From: Flavobacterium lacisediminis
GTDB taxonomy: Bacteria > Bacteroidota > Bacteroidia > Flavobacteriales > Flavobacteriaceae
Length of the DNA stretch: 64,000 nucleotides
Direction: 5' to 3'
NCBI RefSeq assembly: GCF_025909975.1
Contig: NZ_JAPCIO010000001.1
Span: forward strand, 476,921 to 540,920
The position numbers were made by a program, and so were the translations under genes. Below are positions 50,798 to 58,228 of this stretch, piece by piece. Positions within the stretch are counted from its first letter, which is position 1; every line of letters starts with the position of its first letter. A model generated the notes under the pieces. The model worked only from the letters and a program-made list of their open reading frames with translations, searched no databases and was not told the DNA's origin.

Positions 50798-50825
50798 AAC
50801 CTCTCAGAAATGTGAGGTTTTTTTA
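50798..50825 (+). terminator. Terminator after tRNA-Leu
   Basis: AACCTC / GAGGTT stem with a 10-base loop followed by seven T. Confidence 0.8.
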
Positions 50826-50899
50826 TGTCTATAATTATTAATTTTGTAGATACTTTTTCCAAATCAAAATATAAAGTTTTATATTTGAGAACTATAAAA

Positions 50900-51403
50900 A
50901 TGGCTACAATGAAAAAGAATATAATTTTAGTAAGTATCTTAAGTTCAATATTGTTTGTTTCTTGTAAAAAAGATGTGGAAATAAAACCAGTTGAAGAAAC
51001 ACAACAACCTGCCCAACCTTTTTCAGGTGAGGCTTGGTTAAAACAGAGAGTTGGGAATCAGGGAAAACAAATCCAACCTGTACAACAACAAGTACAACAA
51101 ACTACTCAAACACCAACACAAACAGCGCCTGGAATGAATCCGCCACACGGACAGCCCGGACATCGTTGTGAAATTGCTGTGGGAGCGCCTTTGAATTCTA
51201 AGCCTGTTCAAAAAACAAAACCACAAACTATAACACCTGTAGTAAATACAAAAACAGTTGAGCAACCCGTGATGAATGTTAATTCAAAATCTAGTTCGGC
51301 CACGATAGTGGGCTCATCAACACCTCCAGGAATGAATCCACCTCATGGTCAAGAAGGTCATCGTTGTGATATTGCTGTAGGAGCACCACTTCCAAAATCA
51401 TAA
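50900..51403 (+). CDS. Small lipoprotein with duplicated GMNPPHGQxGHRCxIAVGAPL motif
   Basis: I do not know its function. The protein starts at the ATG at 50900 (an ATG at 50909 is equally possible), 13 bases after a TATATTTG box at 50880-50887, which rules out the longer frame from 50825. A lipoprotein signal ends in FVSC (about C22), followed by KKD. The mature part is Gln/Thr/Pro-rich and disordered, with a 20-residue motif of core GMNPPHG and HRC near residues 100-120 and again at about 147-166 (the C-terminus). Each copy has two His and one Cys, so metal or haem binding is possible. There is one gene in the unit; it ends at a terminator at 51414. Confidence 0.75.
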   Translation: MATMKKNIILVSILSSILFVSCKKDVEIKPVEETQQPAQPFSGEAWLKQRVGNQGKQIQPVQQQVQQTTQTPTQTAPGMNPPHGQPGHRCEIAVGAPLNSKPVQKTKPQTITPVVNTKTVEQPVMNVNSKSSSATIVGSSTPPGMNPPHGQEGHRCDIAVGAPLPKS

Positions 51404-51459: not shown

Positions 51460-53565
51460 TTATTTTAATTCTTTAACACCCATATTGTAAAGTGTAAAGA
51501 CTTGCATGTCTACATTTTCTTGAATAGTTGCTGCCACAGATTTTCCTGCTCCGTGACCTGCATTTACATCAATACGAATTAAAACCGGGTTGTCTCCAGC
51601 TTGTTTAGCTTGTAATTCAGCTGCAAATTTAAAACTGTGTGCTGGAACTACTCGGTCATCATGATCCCCTGTAGTTACCATAGTTGCTGGATATTTTGTA
51701 CCAGCTTTTACGTTATGAACTGGTGAATAACCTTTAATGTATTCAAACATTTCCTTGCTTTGTTCAGATGTTCCGTAATCGTATGCCCAACCTGCTCCAG
51801 CGGTAAATGTGTGGTAACGTAACATATCTAAAACACCAACTGCTGGTAACGCCACTTTTACTAAATCTGGGCGTTGTGTCATAACTGCACCCACTAATAA
51901 TCCACCATTCGAACCACCTTTTATCGCTAAATAATCAGATGAAGTGTAGTTTTCTTTGATTAGATATTCAGCTGCTGCAATGAAATCATCAAAAACGTTT
52001 TGTTTTTTCATTTGGGTTCCTGCATCGTGCCATTTTTTACCATATTCTCCACCACCGCGTAAATTTGCAACAGCGTAAACACCACCATTTTCTAACCAAA
52101 CGGCATTAGAAATACTAAAAGCAGGAGTTAAACTTGAATTAAATCCACCATAACCATATAAGATAGTTGGATTTTGTCCGTTTAATTTTGTGCCTTTTTT
52201 ATAAGTGATAATCATTGGAACTTTTGTGCCATCTTTTGAAGTATAAAACACTTGTTTTGATTCGTAATCTGCCGAGTTAAAATCAACTTTTGGTTTTTGA
52301 TAGATTGCTGATTTTCCTGTTTTTGGATCAAAAGAATAGATAGTTCCTGGGGTTACATAATTCGTAAATGAAAAATACAAAGTAGTTTCTTTTTCTTTTC
52401 CACCAAAACCACCAGCTGTTCCAACACCTGGCAATTGAATGTCACGTACTAGTTTTCCGTTGTAATCATATTGTTTGATGAATGAAACCGCATCTTTCAT
52501 GTAACTTGCAAAAATATAACCGCTACCAGTGTTTGGCGACAATACATTTTCAGTCTCAGCGATGCAATCTTTCCAATTTTCTTTTGCTGGATTTGATAAA
52601 TCAAAAGTCACCACGCGTTTGTTTGGCGCTTTGTAATTCGTTACCAAATAAATTTTCGAACCTTTATTATCTAAAACATCATTATCGTTTTCGTAATTGT
52701 TAATTAACGTTACGATTTTGCTATTTGGTTTTGATAAATCCAAGTAATACAATTCGTTTCCAGAAGTTGAATTCGCTGCCGAAATGAATAAATACTTTTC
52801 ATCTTCCGAAACGCCACCGCCAACATATCTTCTTTTTATATCACCACCAAAAACTAATTTATCTGTTTTTTGCGATGTGTTTAATTTGTGATAGTATAAT
52901 TTATGTTGGTCCGTTTTTGCTGATAATTCACTTCCAACAGGTTTATCGTAGCTTGAATAATAAAAACCTTCGTTTTTGTACCAAGAAACACCGCTAAATT
53001 TTACATCCACAATTGTATCACCAATAATTTTTTTAGTTTTGGTATCAATTACGATTACTTTTCTCCAATCACTTCCACCTTCTGATATAGAATAGGCTGC
53101 TAAACTCCCGTCTTTACTGAAATTTAATCCACCTAAAGAAGTCGTTCCGTCTTTTGAAAATGTATTTGGATCTAAAAAGATTTCTTCTTTACCCGCTTTA
53201 TCTTTTCTGTAAACAACCGATTGATTTTGAAGTCCGTTATTTTTGTAGTAATACGTATAATTTCCTTCTTTGAATGGAGCTCCAATTTTTTCGTAGTTCC
53301 ATAGTTTTTCCATGCGGGTTTTTAACTGATTTCTGTATGGAATTTGCTCTAAATAACCATAAGTAACCACATTTTGAGCTTTCACCCAAGCTTCCGTTTC
53401 GGCGCTTCGGTCGTCTTCTAACCAACGATACGGATCGTTAATTTTTTCACCAAAATAGGTGTCAACGTGGTCGATTTTTTTCGTTTCGGGATAATTAACT
53501 TTTGTTGTTTGCGCGTTCATAACAAGTGTACAAACAATAGCCGATACTGTTATTGTTTTTTTCAT
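51460..53565 (-). CDS. Prolyl oligopeptidase (S9A), exported
   Basis: Serine peptidase cleaving after proline in small peptides. The 701 residues have a signal peptide (1-18, ending VMNAQ), a seven-bladed propeller in the middle (about 80-420), and the alpha/beta catalytic domain at both ends. The nucleophile is S552 in GGSNGG. The acid is in TGDHDDRVVP and the His in NAGHGAG. The start at 53563-53565 is chosen because the longer frame to 53598 passes over a TATCTTTG box at 53586-53593. Flavobacterial enzymes of this kind are periplasmic. It fits the local set of peptide-degrading genes. Confidence 0.94.
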   Translation of the reverse strand: MKKTITVSAIVCTLVMNAQTTKVNYPETKKIDHVDTYFGEKINDPYRWLEDDRSAETEAWVKAQNVVTYGYLEQIPYRNQLKTRMEKLWNYEKIGAPFKEGNYTYYYKNNGLQNQSVVYRKDKAGKEEIFLDPNTFSKDGTTSLGGLNFSKDGSLAAYSISEGGSDWRKVIVIDTKTKKIIGDTIVDVKFSGVSWYKNEGFYYSSYDKPVGSELSAKTDQHKLYYHKLNTSQKTDKLVFGGDIKRRYVGGGVSEDEKYLFISAANSTSGNELYYLDLSKPNSKIVTLINNYENDNDVLDNKGSKIYLVTNYKAPNKRVVTFDLSNPAKENWKDCIAETENVLSPNTGSGYIFASYMKDAVSFIKQYDYNGKLVRDIQLPGVGTAGGFGGKEKETTLYFSFTNYVTPGTIYSFDPKTGKSAIYQKPKVDFNSADYESKQVFYTSKDGTKVPMIITYKKGTKLNGQNPTILYGYGGFNSSLTPAFSISNAVWLENGGVYAVANLRGGGEYGKKWHDAGTQMKKQNVFDDFIAAAEYLIKENYTSSDYLAIKGGSNGGLLVGAVMTQRPDLVKVALPAVGVLDMLRYHTFTAGAGWAYDYGTSEQSKEMFEYIKGYSPVHNVKAGTKYPATMVTTGDHDDRVVPAHSFKFAAELQAKQAGDNPVLIRIDVNAGHGAGKSVAATIQENVDMQVFTLYNMGVKELK

Positions 53566-53627
53566 ATTGTATTTGATGTTTAAAACAAAGATATTCATTT
53601 GAATTCTAAAGATTTGTTAAAAAACAA

Positions 53628-53673: not shown

Positions 53674-54234
53674 TTAGTTTACTGTAATTGGAAAGTAAAC
53701 TTCTGCATCAGTGTTTCCATCTGCATTTGTAATACTTCCTTCACTAACACCTGGAGCCGTTTTGTTTGGTAAATGTCTCAAGGTTACAGTTAAAGTTCCT
53801 GTTGTTCCAGAAGTTCCTGCTACAAAATTAAAGTGTAAACCAATTGGGTTTCCTTCTGAATCTAAATCAGTAGCACTATATGTTATATTTCCTAATGCTC
53901 CGCTTAAAAAATAAAAAATTTGGTGATCTAAACTTTCTTCAACAATTTCTGTTGTAATGTCTTCGATCGGATCGGCTAATTCATTTAAAAATGTTGTTGA
54001 ACCTGTGTAAGTTGTTCCAGCTACTAAATTTCCAGAAACAGTTACAACTGGTGCGTTTGGTCCGTCACCATCTAAATCTCTTGAAGTTAAGGTGATAGTT
54101 TGTCCACCTCCAACAAGTGTTGTAGTTACAGTTGTGATAACTTCTTCCTCGTTCACAGGAGTATCCTCGTTAGAACAAGAAGTTGAAAATATTACTGGAA
54201 TTACTAAAAGTGCGATAAGTTTTAAATTTTTCAT
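53674..54234 (-). CDS. Lipoprotein partner of TonB receptor, function unknown
   Basis: A 186-residue lipoprotein, with lipobox FSTSC (C20) and an acidic NEDTPVNEEE linker. The mature part is beta-rich with recognisable segments TLTSRDLDGDGPNAPVVTV, TTYTGSTTFLNE and HFNFVAG. Relatives are, to my memory, labelled type 1 periplasmic-binding-fold proteins, a name the sequence does not justify. It follows the TonB receptor gene by 11 bases and so is co-transcribed. It may capture the ligand on the cell surface, as SusD-like and other partner lipoproteins do, but it is not SusD-like. Confidence 0.75.
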   Translation of the reverse strand: MKNLKLIALLVIPVIFSTSCSNEDTPVNEEEVITTVTTTLVGGGQTITLTSRDLDGDGPNAPVVTVSGNLVAGTTYTGSTTFLNELADPIEDITTEIVEESLDHQIFYFLSGALGNITYSATDLDSEGNPIGLHFNFVAGTSGTTGTLTVTLRHLPNKTAPGVSEGSITNADGNTDAEVYFPITVN

Positions 54235-54245
54235 GTTTTGATTTT

Positions 54246-56627
54246 TTAATAATTAAATTTTAATTGAATTTGAATGTTTCTACCCATTTCGTCTACAAAA
54301 AAACGTTGGCGATTTAGGTAATCTCGATACGTTGTATTCATTATATTCTGTACACTTAAAGAAGTGGTTAAACTGTTCTTTTTATTGATTTTAAACGTCA
54401 TTTCACTATAAAAATGCAGTAAATGATAGCCTTTTGGTGGCGAACTAATATCAACCATAACCGGAGTTAGTGCATCATTTACAATAATATTAGTTTCAAA
54501 ATTGTAATTTGGGAATTGATTTTGTCTGAAAACCACTTCACTTTTTAATTCGGTTGCGAAATTGAACCAAGATTCATTTTTATATTGAATTTTATTGTTG
54601 ATTACAAATGGCGGCATATCAATTAAATACTCGTCAGTACTTAAGTTTTGCCCGTTTACATAAGCCATTCCTAACTCGTGTGAAAAATGGTTGGAAATAT
54701 TCCATTTGGTATTGATATCAAAACCTGTCAACAAAGCTTCTGTTTGTTTGAATTCCCAAACTGGAAAAGCGCCTCGAATAGTAGTTTCAAAACCAATAGG
54801 TTGCAAATAAATGAAATTTGAAATTCGATTAATAAACGGATTAAGTTGCACTTGAAACGATTTCCAATCTTTCTTAAAAGTGGTGTTGAATTTATAGGCT
54901 TGCTCTTTTTCTAATCGTAAATCACCTAATTCAATTTGACCAGTTGAATGATGTAATCCATCGCTAAATAATTCAGACGGATTTGGATTTCGAGAAGCCA
55001 AACTCACATTTACTAACCATTCCATTTCATGATGAAATTGCTTTCTAAATCCAATGTTTGCTGTAATATTATGATAATCAAAAGTAGGTTTCGTTAACCA
55101 TTGATTGCCTTCTTCACCCACAATAAAATGTGAAAATTCAGCATCATAACCACGTTCAGTCCATCTTGATTTCAAATAATATTTTGTTGCTTCGATAGTC
55201 GAAAAATCATAACGAATTCCCGATTCCAAAGAAGTAGCATTGTCGAATTTATAAACTGCAATTCCGTACAAGCCAGCATCTAATTTTTCATAACTCGGAA
55301 TTAGTGGACGAACTCCTGTTTTTGGATTCGCAAAATTATTTTGGTAACCCAAATTAAAACCCGATTTCAATCTCCAACTTCCAACATTCGTTTTATAATC
55401 AGCTAAAAAAGTATGCGTTGCCAATTGTAAATCTAAAGCGGCTTTGTTAGTATTTGCACTACTTCTTCTAACATCAAACTCTAAACGATTGTTGAATTGA
55501 AATGCATATTGCAAATCAATCGAAGTGTTTTCGTTTAGCCATCTTTGGTAATTTACTTTTGCTAAATGATGTTGTACTTCTTGTTTTGGAGCATCAATCG
55601 AGTAGGTGAAAGGTTCAATTACGCTTGGTTGTTGGTTGTTGATGGAATTGTATAAATCATTCACATTTCCAATATGAGCTGCTTTGATGATTCCAATTTG
55701 CGCATTGTAAAAACTGTACATCGCATTGAAATTATACTTTTCTTGAGCAAAACGAATGCCTCCCGAAAAATTTTGTTCCCGATTTCCAGAATTTGACAAC
55801 ACATAATCTGGCGTTTCGCGATCGCCTAAATATTTGAAAGTTCCCAAAGCATTCCAACTCCAACCATAACGATTTCCCTTTTGAATACTTGAACTCAAGC
55901 TTCCGCCCATTCCGTTAGAGGCTAAGTTAAGAATTGTTTTTCCAACTAAAGTATCTTTTTTAATCACTTCAGGTTCGATGACAACAATTCCACCAATAGC
56001 ATCACCGCCATATTGCAAAGCCGAAGCACCTTTAATCACGGTAATTTTTCCAGCCGCATTAATATCGAAATTAGGTGCATGTTCGGTTCCCCACTGTTGG
56101 TCTTCTAATCGAACATTATTATTGATAATTGGCACACGATTACTATGCAAACCATTAATTACTGGTTTAACAATAGTGCTTCCCGTTTTTAAAATAGAAA
56201 CTCCAGAAACTTCTTTCAAGGCTTCACCCAAGGTTTGATTACTAAATTTTTCAATAGTAGCACTTTTCAAGACTTGTTCGTTACTACTTTCGCTTTTTGA
56301 ATTGGAAAGTTGTCGAATAGTAATATCATCTAACTTGGTAATATCTAGTTTCAATCGTCGATTAATAGTTAAATCGGTTGAAATTTCGATAGTTTCCTCA
56401 ATAGCATAATAGCCTATAAACGAAATATAGAGTTTCTGTTTCCCTTTTGGAATGCCTGATAAAACATAAGTTCCGTTTGCATCGGTTGAAGTAGTTTTAT
56501 TGGCAATGTGTACGTGAGCATCTCTTAGTGGTAAGCCATTTTCATCTGAAATAATGCCAGTAATTGTAACTTGAGCATATCCGAAAAAGCCAACCAAAAA
56601 GAAAAATAATATCGATAAGAATCGCAT
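54246..56627 (-). CDS. TonB-dependent receptor with carboxypeptidase-like N-domain
   Basis: Outer-membrane 22-stranded gated channel, 793 residues: signal peptide (1-18), CarboxypepD_reg-like domain (about 19-105, ITGIISDENGLPLRDAHVHI), plug domain (about 110-215, KSATIEKFSNQTLGEALKEV and VIKGASALQYGGDAIGG) and beta-barrel to the C-terminal phenylalanine-rich end (QIQLKFNY). It is shorter than SusC-type polysaccharide receptors, fitting a metal or siderophore receptor. It lies between a His/Cys-rich small protein (65 bases upstream) and a lipoprotein (11 bases downstream). The ligand is not identifiable; copper, zinc or iron-chelate are the most likely. Confidence 0.9.
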   Translation of the reverse strand: MRFLSILFFFLVGFFGYAQVTITGIISDENGLPLRDAHVHIANKTTSTDANGTYVLSGIPKGKQKLYISFIGYYAIEETIEISTDLTINRRLKLDITKLDDITIRQLSNSKSESSNEQVLKSATIEKFSNQTLGEALKEVSGVSILKTGSTIVKPVINGLHSNRVPIINNNVRLEDQQWGTEHAPNFDINAAGKITVIKGASALQYGGDAIGGIVVIEPEVIKKDTLVGKTILNLASNGMGGSLSSSIQKGNRYGWSWNALGTFKYLGDRETPDYVLSNSGNREQNFSGGIRFAQEKYNFNAMYSFYNAQIGIIKAAHIGNVNDLYNSINNQQPSVIEPFTYSIDAPKQEVQHHLAKVNYQRWLNENTSIDLQYAFQFNNRLEFDVRRSSANTNKAALDLQLATHTFLADYKTNVGSWRLKSGFNLGYQNNFANPKTGVRPLIPSYEKLDAGLYGIAVYKFDNATSLESGIRYDFSTIEATKYYLKSRWTERGYDAEFSHFIVGEEGNQWLTKPTFDYHNITANIGFRKQFHHEMEWLVNVSLASRNPNPSELFSDGLHHSTGQIELGDLRLEKEQAYKFNTTFKKDWKSFQVQLNPFINRISNFIYLQPIGFETTIRGAFPVWEFKQTEALLTGFDINTKWNISNHFSHELGMAYVNGQNLSTDEYLIDMPPFVINNKIQYKNESWFNFATELKSEVVFRQNQFPNYNFETNIIVNDALTPVMVDISSPPKGYHLLHFYSEMTFKINKKNSLTTSLSVQNIMNTTYRDYLNRQRFFVDEMGRNIQIQLKFNY

Positions 56628-56692
56628 TTCTTTTAGTTTAAATGTAACAACAACGTATCATTATTTTTTGTAATGATATCGAAATATATTTT

Positions 56693-57040
56693 TTAAACTA
56701 AAGCAGGCGGACCGCGAAGGTAAAACGAATTCCCTTCAAACGTAACGCAAGATTCATTACTGTTAAATTGATACGGAATTTCGTAAAAAGAAGGAATAAA
56801 GTCAAAATGAAATACTTCAGGTGAAAGGAAAGCCGCAAATTTGAAATCACAAACGGGACAATCTTCACTTTCAGTAAACGTTTTTTCAGAAGTTTTAAAA
56901 GTCAAATGATGAGAATCATCACAACATTCTGTTTTTAAATGGTGATCATGAGAAAAAGTGTGAATAGATTGATAACTCACAGCAAATAATACTGCAAGCA
57001 TCAAAAACAAATTCATATGTAATAATTTCTTTTTCACCAT
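56693..57040 (-). CDS. Small exported His/Cys-rich protein
   Basis: A 115-residue protein with an N-terminal signal or anchor segment (KKK followed by about 16 hydrophobic residues) and then a run of potential metal ligands: HTFSHDHH, CCDDSHH and CPVC. The layout resembles small DUF2946-type proteins found beside copper or zinc transport genes. The start codon is ambiguous: the ATG at 57038-57040 gives a good signal peptide but sits only a few bases after the promoter box, whereas the ATG at 57014-57016 gives a shorter form. It lies upstream of the TonB receptor gene and probably heads the operon. Confidence 0.72.
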   Translation of the reverse strand: MVKKKLLHMNLFLMLAVLFAVSYQSIHTFSHDHHLKTECCDDSHHLTFKTSEKTFTESEDCPVCDFKFAAFLSPEVFHFDFIPSFYEIPYQFNSNESCVTFEGNSFYLRGPPALV

Positions 57041-57042
57041 CA

Positions 57043-57071
57043 CAAATATACTGCTTTTAGAACAAAGCCAA
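57043..57071 (-). promoter_or_regulatory. Promoter of the TonB cassette
   Basis: On the minus strand: TTG (57071-57069), 18 bases, TATATTTG (57050-57043). It is directly next to the small gene's ATG, implying a very short or absent leader. No Fur- or Zur-like palindrome was clear. Confidence 0.65.
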
Positions 57072-57077
57072 AAAACA

Positions 57078-57132
57078 AACCACGAATTAACGAATTTTTA
57101 AGTTTTGATGACTTATTCGCTAGTTCGTGGTT
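57078..57132. repeat. Imperfect inverted repeat (ACCACGAATTAACGAA type)
   Basis: Arms 57078-57094 and 57116-57132, each 17 bases, pair at 15 positions, with a 21-base centre. Confidence 0.75.
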
Positions 57133-57238: not shown

Positions 57239-58228
57239 TTATACCAAGTTATTCGCAACCAAATATTCCGCAATTTGGATTGTATTCGTAGCTGCTCCTT
57301 TTCTTAAGTTATCGGCAACAATCCACATATTGATGGTGTTTGGTTGGCTTTCATCTCTTCGGATTCTACCTACGAAAACATCGTCTTTTCCTTGTGCGTA
57401 AATTGGCATTGGATAGGTGTAAGTATCTAAATTATCTTGAACCGTCACACCAGGCGTGTTTTGTAAAATTTGACGCACTTCGTTCACATCAAAATCATTC
57501 TCAAACTGAATGTTTACGGCTTCACTATGTCCGCCAACGACTGGAATACGAATCGCAGTTGCTGTAACCGCGATGGTTTTGTCGTTTAAGATTTTTTGTG
57601 TTTCGCGCACCAATTTCATTTCTTCTTTGGTGTAACCGTTTGCTTCAAAACTATCACATTGAGGAATTGCATTTCTGTGAATTGGATATTTGTATGCCAT
57701 TTCATCTTGAATTCCTGCATATTCGTTTTCTAACTGACGCACGGCTTTTACACCAGTTCCAGTTATCGATTGATAAGTAGAAACTACAATACGTTTGATA
57801 TCATATTTGGCATGTAAAGGCGCTAAAGCCATTACCATTTGAATCGTTGAACAGTTTGGATTTGCAATAATTTTATCTTCTTTAGTTAAAACGTTTGCAT
57901 TGATTTCTGGAACGACTAATTTCTTAGTAGCATCCATACGCCAAGCAGAAGAATTATCGATTACGGTTGTTCCTGCAGCAGCAAATTTTGGAGCCCATTC
58001 TAAAGAAGTTTCTCCACCTGCCGAAAACAAAGCAATCTCAGGTTTCATATCTACAGCGGTTTGTAAACCTACTACTTTATAGGTGTTACCTTTCCATTCG
58101 ATTTCTTTCCCAACTGATTTTTCAGAAGCAACTGGAATTAACTCCGTTACAGGAAAATTACGTTCTGCTAATACTTGAAGCATTATTTCGCCTACCATTC
58201 CGGTAGCGCCAACTACGGCTACTTTCAT
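57239..58228 (-). CDS. asd: Aspartate-semialdehyde dehydrogenase
   Basis: Makes aspartate semialdehyde for lysine, threonine, methionine and diaminopimelate synthesis. The 329 residues contain the NADP loop GATGMVG (7-13), the catalytic Cys in NPNCSTIQ (C126), STYQSITGTG, and an active-site His in GGHSEAVNI. The length is normal. No neighbouring lysine or threonine pathway gene is seen. A pair of degenerate inverted repeats occupies its downstream side. Confidence 0.97.
   Translation of the reverse strand: MKVAVVGATGMVGEIMLQVLAERNFPVTELIPVASEKSVGKEIEWKGNTYKVVGLQTAVDMKPEIALFSAGGETSLEWAPKFAAAGTTVIDNSSAWRMDATKKLVVPEINANVLTKEDKIIANPNCSTIQMVMALAPLHAKYDIKRIVVSTYQSITGTGVKAVRQLENEYAGIQDEMAYKYPIHRNAIPQCDSFEANGYTKEEMKLVRETQKILNDKTIAVTATAIRIPVVGGHSEAVNIQFENDFDVNEVRQILQNTPGVTVQDNLDTYTYPMPIYAQGKDDVFVGRIRRDESQPNTINMWIVADNLRKGAATNTIQIAEYLVANNLV

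What the first reader, a model, noticed from the sequence alone, without database searches (positions are those of the whole stretch)
53674..57071. TonB cassette with a metal-ligand-rich leader protein and a partner lipoprotein
A small exported protein with HxxHDHH, CCDDSHH and CPVC, a short TonB receptor and an unclassified lipoprotein form one transcript behind one promoter. The set looks like an uptake or sensing system for a metal ion or complex, with the small protein as a metal chaperone or sensor. The lipoprotein family has no established function.
Basis: inference. Interest (0 to 1): 0.52.

Follow-up and report, generated by a model that had tools for sequence, protein, structure and literature searches.

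The report
Metal-uptake operon with ribosome-stalling leader
A small bacterial protein that looked like a metal carrier is more likely a built-in sensor: while being made it probably jams the ribosome and so decides whether the neighbouring genes, which import a metal that is probably zinc, are switched on.

Summary
The three genes are real and conserved: leader (56693-57040), TonB-dependent receptor (54246-56627), lipoprotein (53674-54234), minus strand of a Flavobacterium genome. The lipoprotein adjoins 94 of 96 receptors across the family (window included) and 52 of 52 in the genus; the leader is present at 82 of 96, and at 50 of 50 genus loci with upstream sequence. The receptor is ZnuD-like: ZnuD is its top structural match, and three of ZnuD's four zinc ligands align to near-invariant residues. 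The lipoprotein has two near-invariant His and a surface-export-type N-terminus. The leader fits best not as a chaperone but as a metal-sensing translation-arrest peptide like Bordetella CruR: export segment, His/Cys ligands, RGPP or RAPP ending in 108 of 132, with a Cys 48-49 residues before that Arg in 107 of 108 (CruR: 49). In the window an RNA stem whose 5' arm starts four bases after the stall codons covers the region before the receptor start (z -2.9). The DUF2946 model does not match, so it is CruR-like, not a CruR. Arrest, metal identity and response are untested. A Cys-bearing Fur-family regulator and operator tie the cassette to metal control in some relatives, not in this genome.

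The parts
57043..57072 (-). Flavobacterium-type promoter (-33 TTTG, -7 TATATTTG) directly in front of the leader
   Evidence: pattern match; consensus recalled; inferred, near-leaderless start
56693..57040 (-). Leader: small exported His/Cys protein, probable metal-sensing translation-arrest peptide
56849..56860 (-). CPVC codons (C61-C64), putative metal site of the nascent chain; C61 is 48 residues before R109
56705..56716 (-). RGPP codons (R109-P112), putative arrest motif, three residues before the stop
   Evidence: motif activity from PMC12992588 (passages)
56633..56701 (-). RNA stem-loop: 5' arm 56692-56701 (end of the leader gene), 3' arm 56633-56642, which is -15 to -6 of the receptor ATG
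   Evidence: fold z -2.94; family statistics; stretch 95% identical by column with five close relatives
54246..56627 (-). ZnuD-like TonB-dependent receptor, 793 aa; E182-H183 and H559 align with ZnuD D99-H100 and H499
53674..54234 (-). Partner lipoprotein, 186 aa; lipobox C20, acidic residues after it (surface-export type), conserved H104, H154, D176, E31, Y76

Best explanation
The cassette is an outer-membrane importer for a divalent metal, most likely zinc, that carries its own translational sensor. The receptor takes the metal through a ZnuD-type site (acid-His in the plug, His in an extracellular loop). The surface lipoprotein, which has conserved His and Asp, captures metal and hands it to the receptor, as lid lipoproteins do in other Bacteroidota TonB pairs. 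The leader is made first and threads into the export pathway. When metal is scarce the ribosome stalls at RGPP, three residues before the stop. It then sits on the 5' arm of a stem-loop that otherwise masks the region before the receptor start, so receptor and lipoprotein are translated. When metal binds the nascent Cys/His site, 48 residues back from the Arg, the stall is released, the stem closes and synthesis falls. Shown here: gene linkage, motifs and their spacing, RNA complementarity, ligand alignment, top structural match. Inferred: arrest, its release by metal, zinc as the metal, surface location, metal binding by the lipoprotein.
For: Linkage. Arrest leader: R[GA]PP ending in 108 of 132, 58 of these 108 with exactly three residues after it; Cys 48 or 49 residues before the Arg in 107 of 108 and in 65 of 66 R[GA]PP representatives at under 50% identity. 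CruR has CXXC at 90-93 and RAPP at 139-142, three residues from its end, so its offset is 49 (PMC9426467, section 9). RGPP and RAPP support arrest in the widest range of contexts, and such small proteins are enriched before TonB receptor genes (PMC12992588, passages). Hydrophobic export segment in 132 of 132. RNA: median z -2.2, 69 of 127 below -2, against 0 of 121 at the receptor-lipoprotein junction; at least 5 pairs between the first 18 nt after PP and the receptor start in 102 of 127, 38.7 expected; in the window the start region goes from 0.35 to 0.71 unpaired when the first 15 nt are held open. Zinc-type receptor: ZnuD is best in PDB by sequence, profile and fold. H183 is in 95 of 95, H559 in 90 of 95, Glu or Asp at 182 in 146 of 147; the window's receptor has no Cys, so no OprC-type CxxxM. 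Lipoprotein: H154 in 147 of 147, H104 in 146 of 147; His/Asp-rich inserts in four. Metal regulator: operator in 14 of 51 genus loci, 0.37 expected; the same operator precedes the regulator gene in G249, G327, G388 and G413; regulator Cys invariant in 5 of 5 and aligned with the Cys of two Zur proteins.
Against: No arrest or metal response has been measured. The DUF2946 profile is not met. 24 of 132 leaders end otherwise (R/K-PPP, KAPP) with other Cys offsets, 52-57. Of 108 R[GA]PP leaders, 31 lack the second Cys of CxxC, which CruR needs. Holding the footprint open raises start accessibility only from a median 0.47 to 0.60 over 127 loci, by more than 0.2 in 33, and lowers it by more than 0.05 in 17. 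The stem arms do not covary among close relatives. In 41 of 82 family loci the leader follows another ORF within 150 nt, so it does not always head a transcript. 12 receptor-lipoprotein pairs have no leader. The operator was not found before the window's copy; the genome has one Fur-family gene and nothing like the Cys-bearing paralogue. Outside the genus the operator is at 3 of 94 loci, one of them within 100 bp of the first gene. Two relatives have an Nramp (Mn/Fe) gene beside an operator. Some genomes have further operator matches that I could not link to metal genes. ZnuD's E340 could not be aligned.
Confidence: 0.62

Rival explanations
1. The small protein is a stable exported metal chaperone or buffer that works with the receptor in the periplasm; the R-x-P-P tail is incidental or a docking motif.
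For: Hydrophobic export segment in 132 of 132, 9.3% His+Cys against 2.8% in the receptors; stands next to the receptor at 82 of 96 family loci and 50 of 50 genus loci with upstream sequence.
Against: Low sequence conservation apart from ligands and tail; fixed 48-49 residue spacing to an arrest motif close to the stop; RNA stem linked to the stall site. The receptor and lipoprotein do without it at 12 loci.
Confidence: 0.15
2. The leader senses and the system imports copper, as CruR-BfrG and OprC do, not zinc.
For: CxxC is the copper-sensing motif in CruR; OprC is the second structural family, close behind ZnuD; the TonB-copper model matches at 2.5e-24, below its cut-off.
Against: The receptor has no Cys and no CxxxM (OprC motif recalled); the ZnuD acid-His and His positions align; lipoprotein inserts are His/Asp-rich. 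The survey of RAPP/RGPP leaders found its copper-related class absent from Bacteroidota but its TonB class throughout Gram-negatives (PMC12992588, passages).
Confidence: 0.2
3. The substrate is manganese, iron(II) or haem; the conserved His of receptor and lipoprotein form a haem or Mn/Fe site.
For: Nramp gene beside the operator in two genomes; TonB-hemin is the best NCBIfam hit of the receptor, far below its cut-off; the His-His clamp is shared by haem receptors and ZnuD (PMC4557270, passages).
Against: Acidic residue before the plug His; Cys in leader and in the relatives' regulator; no haemophore hit for the window's lipoprotein, nor among the top 25 families listed for its relatives (those lists are capped).
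Confidence: 0.15

Closest known systems
CruR (bp2923)-bfrG-bp2921 operon, Bordetella pertussis (PMC9426467; abstract and sections 9-11 read)
   Same: Small exported protein in front of a TonB receptor; CXXC and RAPP with the same spacing (Cys to Arg 49 there, 48-49 here) and three residues after the motif; three-gene layout.
   Different: No DUF2946 match; RGPP in the window; short intergenic stem (65 nt against 162 bp); third gene is a lipoprotein, not bp2921; receptor ZnuD-like; probable zinc; Rho termination not examined.
CutF-cutO, Rhodobacter capsulatus, and CutF-like proteins (PMC9973294; abstract and sections 10-12 read)
   Same: Exported nascent sensor, C-terminal proline motif, stem-loop over the next gene's start; their list has many Bacteroidota and TonB neighbours.
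   Different: CutF is a copper sensor that raises translation of an oxidase when copper binds; the direction here is expected to be opposite.
RAPP/RGPP small proteins upstream of TonB genes (PMC12992588; passages read)
   Same: Class to which the leader belongs by motif, size, export segment and downstream gene.
   Different: That survey reports the class in general; in the passages read, no flavobacterial member, lipoprotein partner or fixed Cys-Arg spacing is described.
ZnuD, Neisseria meningitidis (PMC4557270; passages read)
   Same: Fold, plug acid-His and loop His ligands.
   Different: 16% identity in the structural alignment, added CarboxypepD_reg domain, lipoprotein partner, E340 not aligned.
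XusAB and BtuBG surface lipoprotein-receptor pairs (PMC13142918 passages; BtuBG through that paper)
   Same: TonB receptor plus a surface lipoprotein acting as ligand-binding lid; XusA also has a carboxypeptidase-like domain.
   Different: XusB is a beta-propeller that binds siderophores; this lipoprotein is predicted as an Ig-like sandwich with conserved His/Asp.

Membership tests
CruR / DUF2946 | Match to PF11162 above its cut-off | tested here: not met
   46 of the 132 leaders scanned: 2 weak hits, best E 0.0074; one of them, L010, 16.9 of 23.7 bits; window leader no hit
CruR / DUF2946 | CXXC and C-terminal RAPP with conserved spacing (45 residues between) | tested here: met
   window CPVC-RGPP 44; 44 or 45 in 50 of 50 genus leaders and in 26 of 26 other R[GA]PP leaders with CxxC; first Cys to Arg 48-49 in 107 of 108. 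31 of 108 lack the second Cys
CruR / DUF2946 | N-terminal export signal or transmembrane segment | tested here: met
   18-residue hydropathy at least 1.6 in 132 of 132; no dedicated predictor was available
CruR / DUF2946 | First gene of an operon ahead of metal genes | tested here: inconclusive
   Fits the window; in 41 of 82 family loci another ORF ends within 150 nt upstream
CruR / DUF2946 | Copper-relieved arrest and Rho termination | not testable with these tools
   needs in vitro translation and reporters
CutF-like proteins | Under 150 aa, PP within the last 15 residues, signal peptide, next gene on the same strand within 1000 nt | tested here: met
   window leader 115 aa, RGPP-ALV, 65 nt to receptor; hydropathy as proxy for signal peptide; criteria from PMC9973294 section 10
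ZnuD | Ligands D99, H100, H499 | tested here: met
   E182 (Glu or Asp), H183, H559 aligned and conserved
ZnuD | Ligand E340 | tested here: inconclusive
   region did not align; E383 is invariant in 95 of 95 in that part of the receptor
ZnuD | NCBIfam NF038289 cut-off | tested here: not met
   78.4 of 950 bits
OprC copper receptor | CxxxM copper ligands (motif recalled) | tested here: not met
   window receptor has no Cys
Surface lipoprotein partner (Xus/Btu type) | Lipobox with export signal rich in Asp/Glu after Cys | tested here: met
   window CSNED; at least two acidic residues at +2 to +6 in 123 of 140 with a Cys found, 147 examined; signal from PMC5080379 passages
XusB | DUF4374 beta-propeller | tested here: not met
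   no Pfam hit for the window protein at E <= 1; 186-aa model with seven to eight strands, pLDDT 89
Zur (regulator in relatives, not in the window) | Sensor-site Cys | tested here: met
   C70 invariant in 5 of 5, aligned with Cys of M. tuberculosis FurB and E. coli Zur, where two of the Fur proteins shown have Asn or Thr; role of this Cys recalled; NCBIfam Zur is the best model for one of two tested, below cut-off

The most novel reading that the evidence does not exclude
The leader is a zinc-sensing arrest peptide: a nascent exported chain that binds zinc through Cys/His and releases an RGPP/RAPP stall, controlling a ZnuD-like receptor and its surface zinc lipoprotein across Flavobacteriaceae. 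It would use CruR geometry without a detectable DUF2946 match, with paralogous leaders ahead of other receptors in the same family.
Probability: 0.42. Interest if true: 0.75.

Novelty: new variant of a known kind. Interest (0 to 1): 0.6.

Why it matters
Metal-sensing arrest leaders are known from a few copper systems. The CruR authors remark that no riboswitch is described for copper or zinc (PMC9426467, discussion). A family-wide leader ahead of a zinc-type importer in another phylum, with the same Cys-to-Arg distance, would show that this mode of control extends to another metal, and that the spacing rather than the rest of the sequence carries the mechanism. It gives a testable function to two unannotated protein families found in about half of the 199 flavobacterial genomes sampled.

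Tried and rejected
Single-sequence search for the leader found only 11 of 199 genomes. This is a sensitivity failure; reading the ORF upstream of each receptor found 82 of 96. Lipoprotein folds: best Foldseek E 3e-3 with TM 0.25, best VIA Z 7.5, within the background the tool describes; hits to P19/FtrA and CrdA were not used as evidence. DUF2946 search in 60 family genomes: 0. Sub-profile search for the ZnuD E340 region: no hits. The window's own upstream region holds no operator match. In a Riemerella zinc-regulation paper the passages I saw did not name this cassette. No paper on the flavobacterial cassette turned up in searches; that is limited to this open-access library and to listings, apart from the papers named as read in sections or passages.

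Considered and rejected: SusCD-type glycan pair (SusC signature TIGR04057 only at E 0.014, under its cut-off; no Pfam hit in the lipoprotein); simple chaperone as first choice (see rivals). An early count of CxxC (92 of 132) looked only after residue 40; the full count is 101 of 132 and is the one used. Rows dropped: one family locus (L141) without a full receptor ORF; four genus loci without a full receptor ORF and two that begin at a contig edge; five of 132 leader-receptor gaps outside 10-200 nt left out of RNA folding. Not fetched: one second receptor piece each of genomes with split receptors where the list showed two (G440).
Full report
WHAT IS THERE. Reading the minus strand from a Flavobacterium-type promoter at 57072-57043 (consensus recalled), the window encodes a 115-aa leader (57040-56693), a 793-aa TonB-dependent receptor (56627-54246) and a 186-aa lipoprotein (54234-53674). 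Gaps are 65 and 11 bases. Upstream lies asd-like coding sequence on the same strand (57239-58228), downstream a prolyl-oligopeptidase-like gene (51460-53598); these two names are my reading of the translations, not from a call. The closest named relatives of the receptor are in Flavobacterium aquaticum and F. cheniae (96% identity).

LINKAGE. In 199 family genomes (198 genera, window's genome included) the receptor (E <= 1e-100) is in 96 and the lipoprotein (E <= 1e-3) in 98. I took the DNA around all 96 receptors and read the neighbours. The lipoprotein is found at 94 of 96 loci: downstream at 78, downstream with an overlapping start call at 3, upstream at 12, and one locus where the receptor was cut. 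The two misses (L109, L111) have split or edge-cut lipoprotein pieces beside the receptor in the genome search (G151, G099). A small His-containing ORF with a C-terminal PP lies just upstream of the receptor in 82 of 96. All 12 loci with the lipoprotein first lack the leader. In the genus, 56 of 249 genomes have the receptor; of 56 loci read, 52 have a full receptor ORF; lipoprotein 52 of 52, leader 50 of 50 with sequence upstream. The set is therefore a unit, with the leader as its most dispensable part.

RECEPTOR. By sequence the best solved relatives are ZnuD (7.7e-12) and OprC (1.7e-6); with a family profile ZnuD 2.9e-27, XusA (9gbc) 1.9e-24, OprC 2.2e-21. The AlphaFold model (pLDDT 85.6) has ZnuD at ranks 1-3 (best 4.6e-36) and OprC next (1.5e-34), so the fold alone separates them little. 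[quoted passage not shown] Counting along the printed alignment, ZnuD D99-H100 falls on E182-H183 and H499 on H559. H183 is in 95 of 95 and H559 in 90 of 95; position 182 is Glu or Asp in 146 of 147. The E340 region did not align; E383 and H353 are invariant in that part (95 of 95). The window's receptor has no Cys. NCBIfam models for haem, copper and ZnuD all match far below cut-off. In other genera the N-terminal CarboxypepD_reg domain carries C60 (92 of 94), H70, C73 and H94 (91 each), H95 (89) and H29 (87); in the genus these are mostly gone (H70 kept in 4 of 53), and H38-x-H40 is found in 51 of 53 instead.

LIPOPROTEIN. No Pfam match for the window's protein and only one weak, unrelated NCBIfam hit; for 70 members only weak, scattered hits among the families listed (lists capped at 25). 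In 147 sequences: H154 147, H104 146, Y76 146, E31 145, D176 144 with Glu in the other 3. Of 140 in which a Cys was found, 123 have two or more acids at +2 to +6, the pattern of the surface-export signal (PMC5080379, passages). Four members have inserts rich in His and Asp, as zinc-capture loops of ZnuD and ZnuA do (PMC4557270, passages). The model (pLDDT 89) is made of strands; H104 starts a strand, H154 ends one and D176 is near the start of the next, so a shared site at one end is plausible, but I had no coordinates to measure. No fold match stands above background.

LEADER. The leaders are diverse (median 28% identity to the window's among 89 representatives), yet keep a hydrophobic N-terminus (132 of 132), His/Cys residues, an invariant Cys (82 of 82) and the tail. 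Of 132, 62 end in RGPP and 46 in RAPP: 50 of 50 in the genus besides the window, 57 of 81 outside; the other 24 have R/K-PPP or KAPP types. Of the 108, 58 have exactly three residues after the motif. R[GA]PP occurs 0 times in 105,186 residues of the receptors of the same loci. Among the 108, a Cys stands 48 (57 leaders) or 49 (50) residues before the Arg, with one exception at 44; with one representative per cluster under 50% identity, 65 of 66. The window's is 48. In 77 of the 108 a second Cys completes CxxC; 31 have Tyr or another residue there. [quoted passage not shown] RAPP is needed for expression of the receptor downstream and CXXC for its control by copper (PMC9426467, section 9). Here the interval is 44 or 45 in every R[GA]PP leader with CxxC: 50 of 50 genus, 26 of 26 others, and the window; the 24 leaders with other tails have 47-51. 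CutF is a second precedent, with a stem-loop over the next gene's start opened by a nascent exported copper sensor (PMC9973294, abstract and sections 10-12). RGPP and RAPP support arrest in the widest range of contexts, and small proteins with them are enriched upstream of TonB receptor genes, across Gram-negatives (PMC12992588, passages). The leaders do not match DUF2946 above cut-off (46 of 132 scanned), so I call this one CruR-like, not a CruR.

RNA. From the last leader codons to the receptor start the window's RNA folds at -15.8 kcal/mol, z -2.94, 1 of 200 shuffles as good. The 5' arm (56701-56692) begins four bases after the second Pro codon; the 3' arm (56642-56633) covers -15 to -6 of the receptor ATG. 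A ribosome stalled on Pro-Pro would sit on the 5' arm. Holding the first 15 bases open raises the unpaired probability of the start region from 0.35 to 0.71. Over 127 loci median z is -2.2 and 69 are below -2, against 0 of 121 for the receptor-lipoprotein junction; for representatives, median -1.9 and 44 of 88. In 102 of 127 at least five pairs join the stall-proximal 18 bases to the start region, 38.7 expected from shuffles. The opening effect is weaker over the family (0.47 to 0.60; more than 0.2 in 33; a fall of more than 0.05 in 17), so the stem model is good for the window and mixed elsewhere. With five close relatives the 89-column stretch is 95% identical by column, without covariation, while sequence further upstream differs.

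METAL CONTROL IN RELATIVES. GCAA(C/T)NNN(A/G)TTGC lies within 200 bp before the leader in 14 of 51 genus loci, 0.37 expected from its rate in all loci, and once in 351,423 bases of receptor genes; outside the genus it is within 900 bp at 3 of 94. In three loci a divergent Fur-family gene adjoins. In genomes where that gene lies elsewhere the operator still stands before both it and the cassette (G327, G388, G413). The regulator has a Cys aligned with the Cys of FurB and Zur, where two of the Fur proteins shown have Asn or Thr, and a His-rich stretch. The operator also stands before an FAD oxidoreductase gene in G249 and G203, and that gene neighbours the regulator in G327, G388 and G413; an operator lies 141-142 bases from an Nramp gene in G249 and G203. 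Nramp favours Mn or Fe and is evidence against zinc. The stricter pattern GCAACNNNRTTGCA has 1 to 8 strand hits per genome in nine genomes, against 0 to 2 for the reversed control; the hits away from cassette, regulator, oxidoreductase and Nramp showed no metal gene in what I read. The window's genome has two hits (control one), neither at the cassette, one Fur-family gene, and none like this regulator.

BREADTH. Leaders with the same geometry (48-50) also stand before other genes: a different TonB-receptor-like ORF in L037, L038, L040, L041, L043, L045 and L046, an ABC ATPase in L047 and another lipoprotein in L048 (these gene names are my reading of translations). The operator lies just upstream of the leaders in L047 and L048. 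The window's case is one of several uses of such leaders in this family.

VERDICT. The metal-uptake reading is supported, zinc more likely than copper, and the small protein is best read as an arrest leader. The kind is known in outline (CruR, CutF, RAPP/RGPP class); the likely metal, the kept spacing without a DUF2946 match, the lipoprotein partner and the stem are the new elements. Nothing here replaces an arrest assay.

Noticed in passing
L037, L038, L040, L041, L043, L045, L046, L047, L048: Leaders with R[GA]PP tails and the same Cys-Arg distance stand before other TonB-receptor-like ORFs, an ABC ATPase or a different lipoprotein; three paralogues in one genome (G127).
   Followed up: partly
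L237 4191-5626 (G249), L246 (G203): A compact regulon: Fur-family regulator with sensor-site Cys divergent from the cassette, FAD oxidoreductase with CPYC, Nramp transporter, with paired operators 38-40 bases apart at the cassette.
   Followed up: partly
54246-56627 against other genera: The receptor's N-terminal domain has a Cys/His cluster (C60, H70, C73, H94, H95) in other genera that the genus Flavobacterium has mostly lost; H38-x-H40 is found there instead.
   Followed up: partly
L007, L009, L012 and others, just upstream of the leader: In 41 of 82 family loci the leader follows within 150 nt an ORF with a conserved F-E/V-K-K-M/T-L tail, apparently in one operon.
   Followed up: no
57071-57130: Inverted repeat in the upstream region (CCACGAACTAGCGAA ... 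TTCGTTAATTCGTGG), also upstream in close relatives, resembling a dispersed intergenic repeat.
   Followed up: no
50825-51403: Exported protein with two copies of a P-G-M-N-P-P-H-G-Q-x-G-H-R-C-x-I-A-V-G-A-P-L motif.
   Followed up: no
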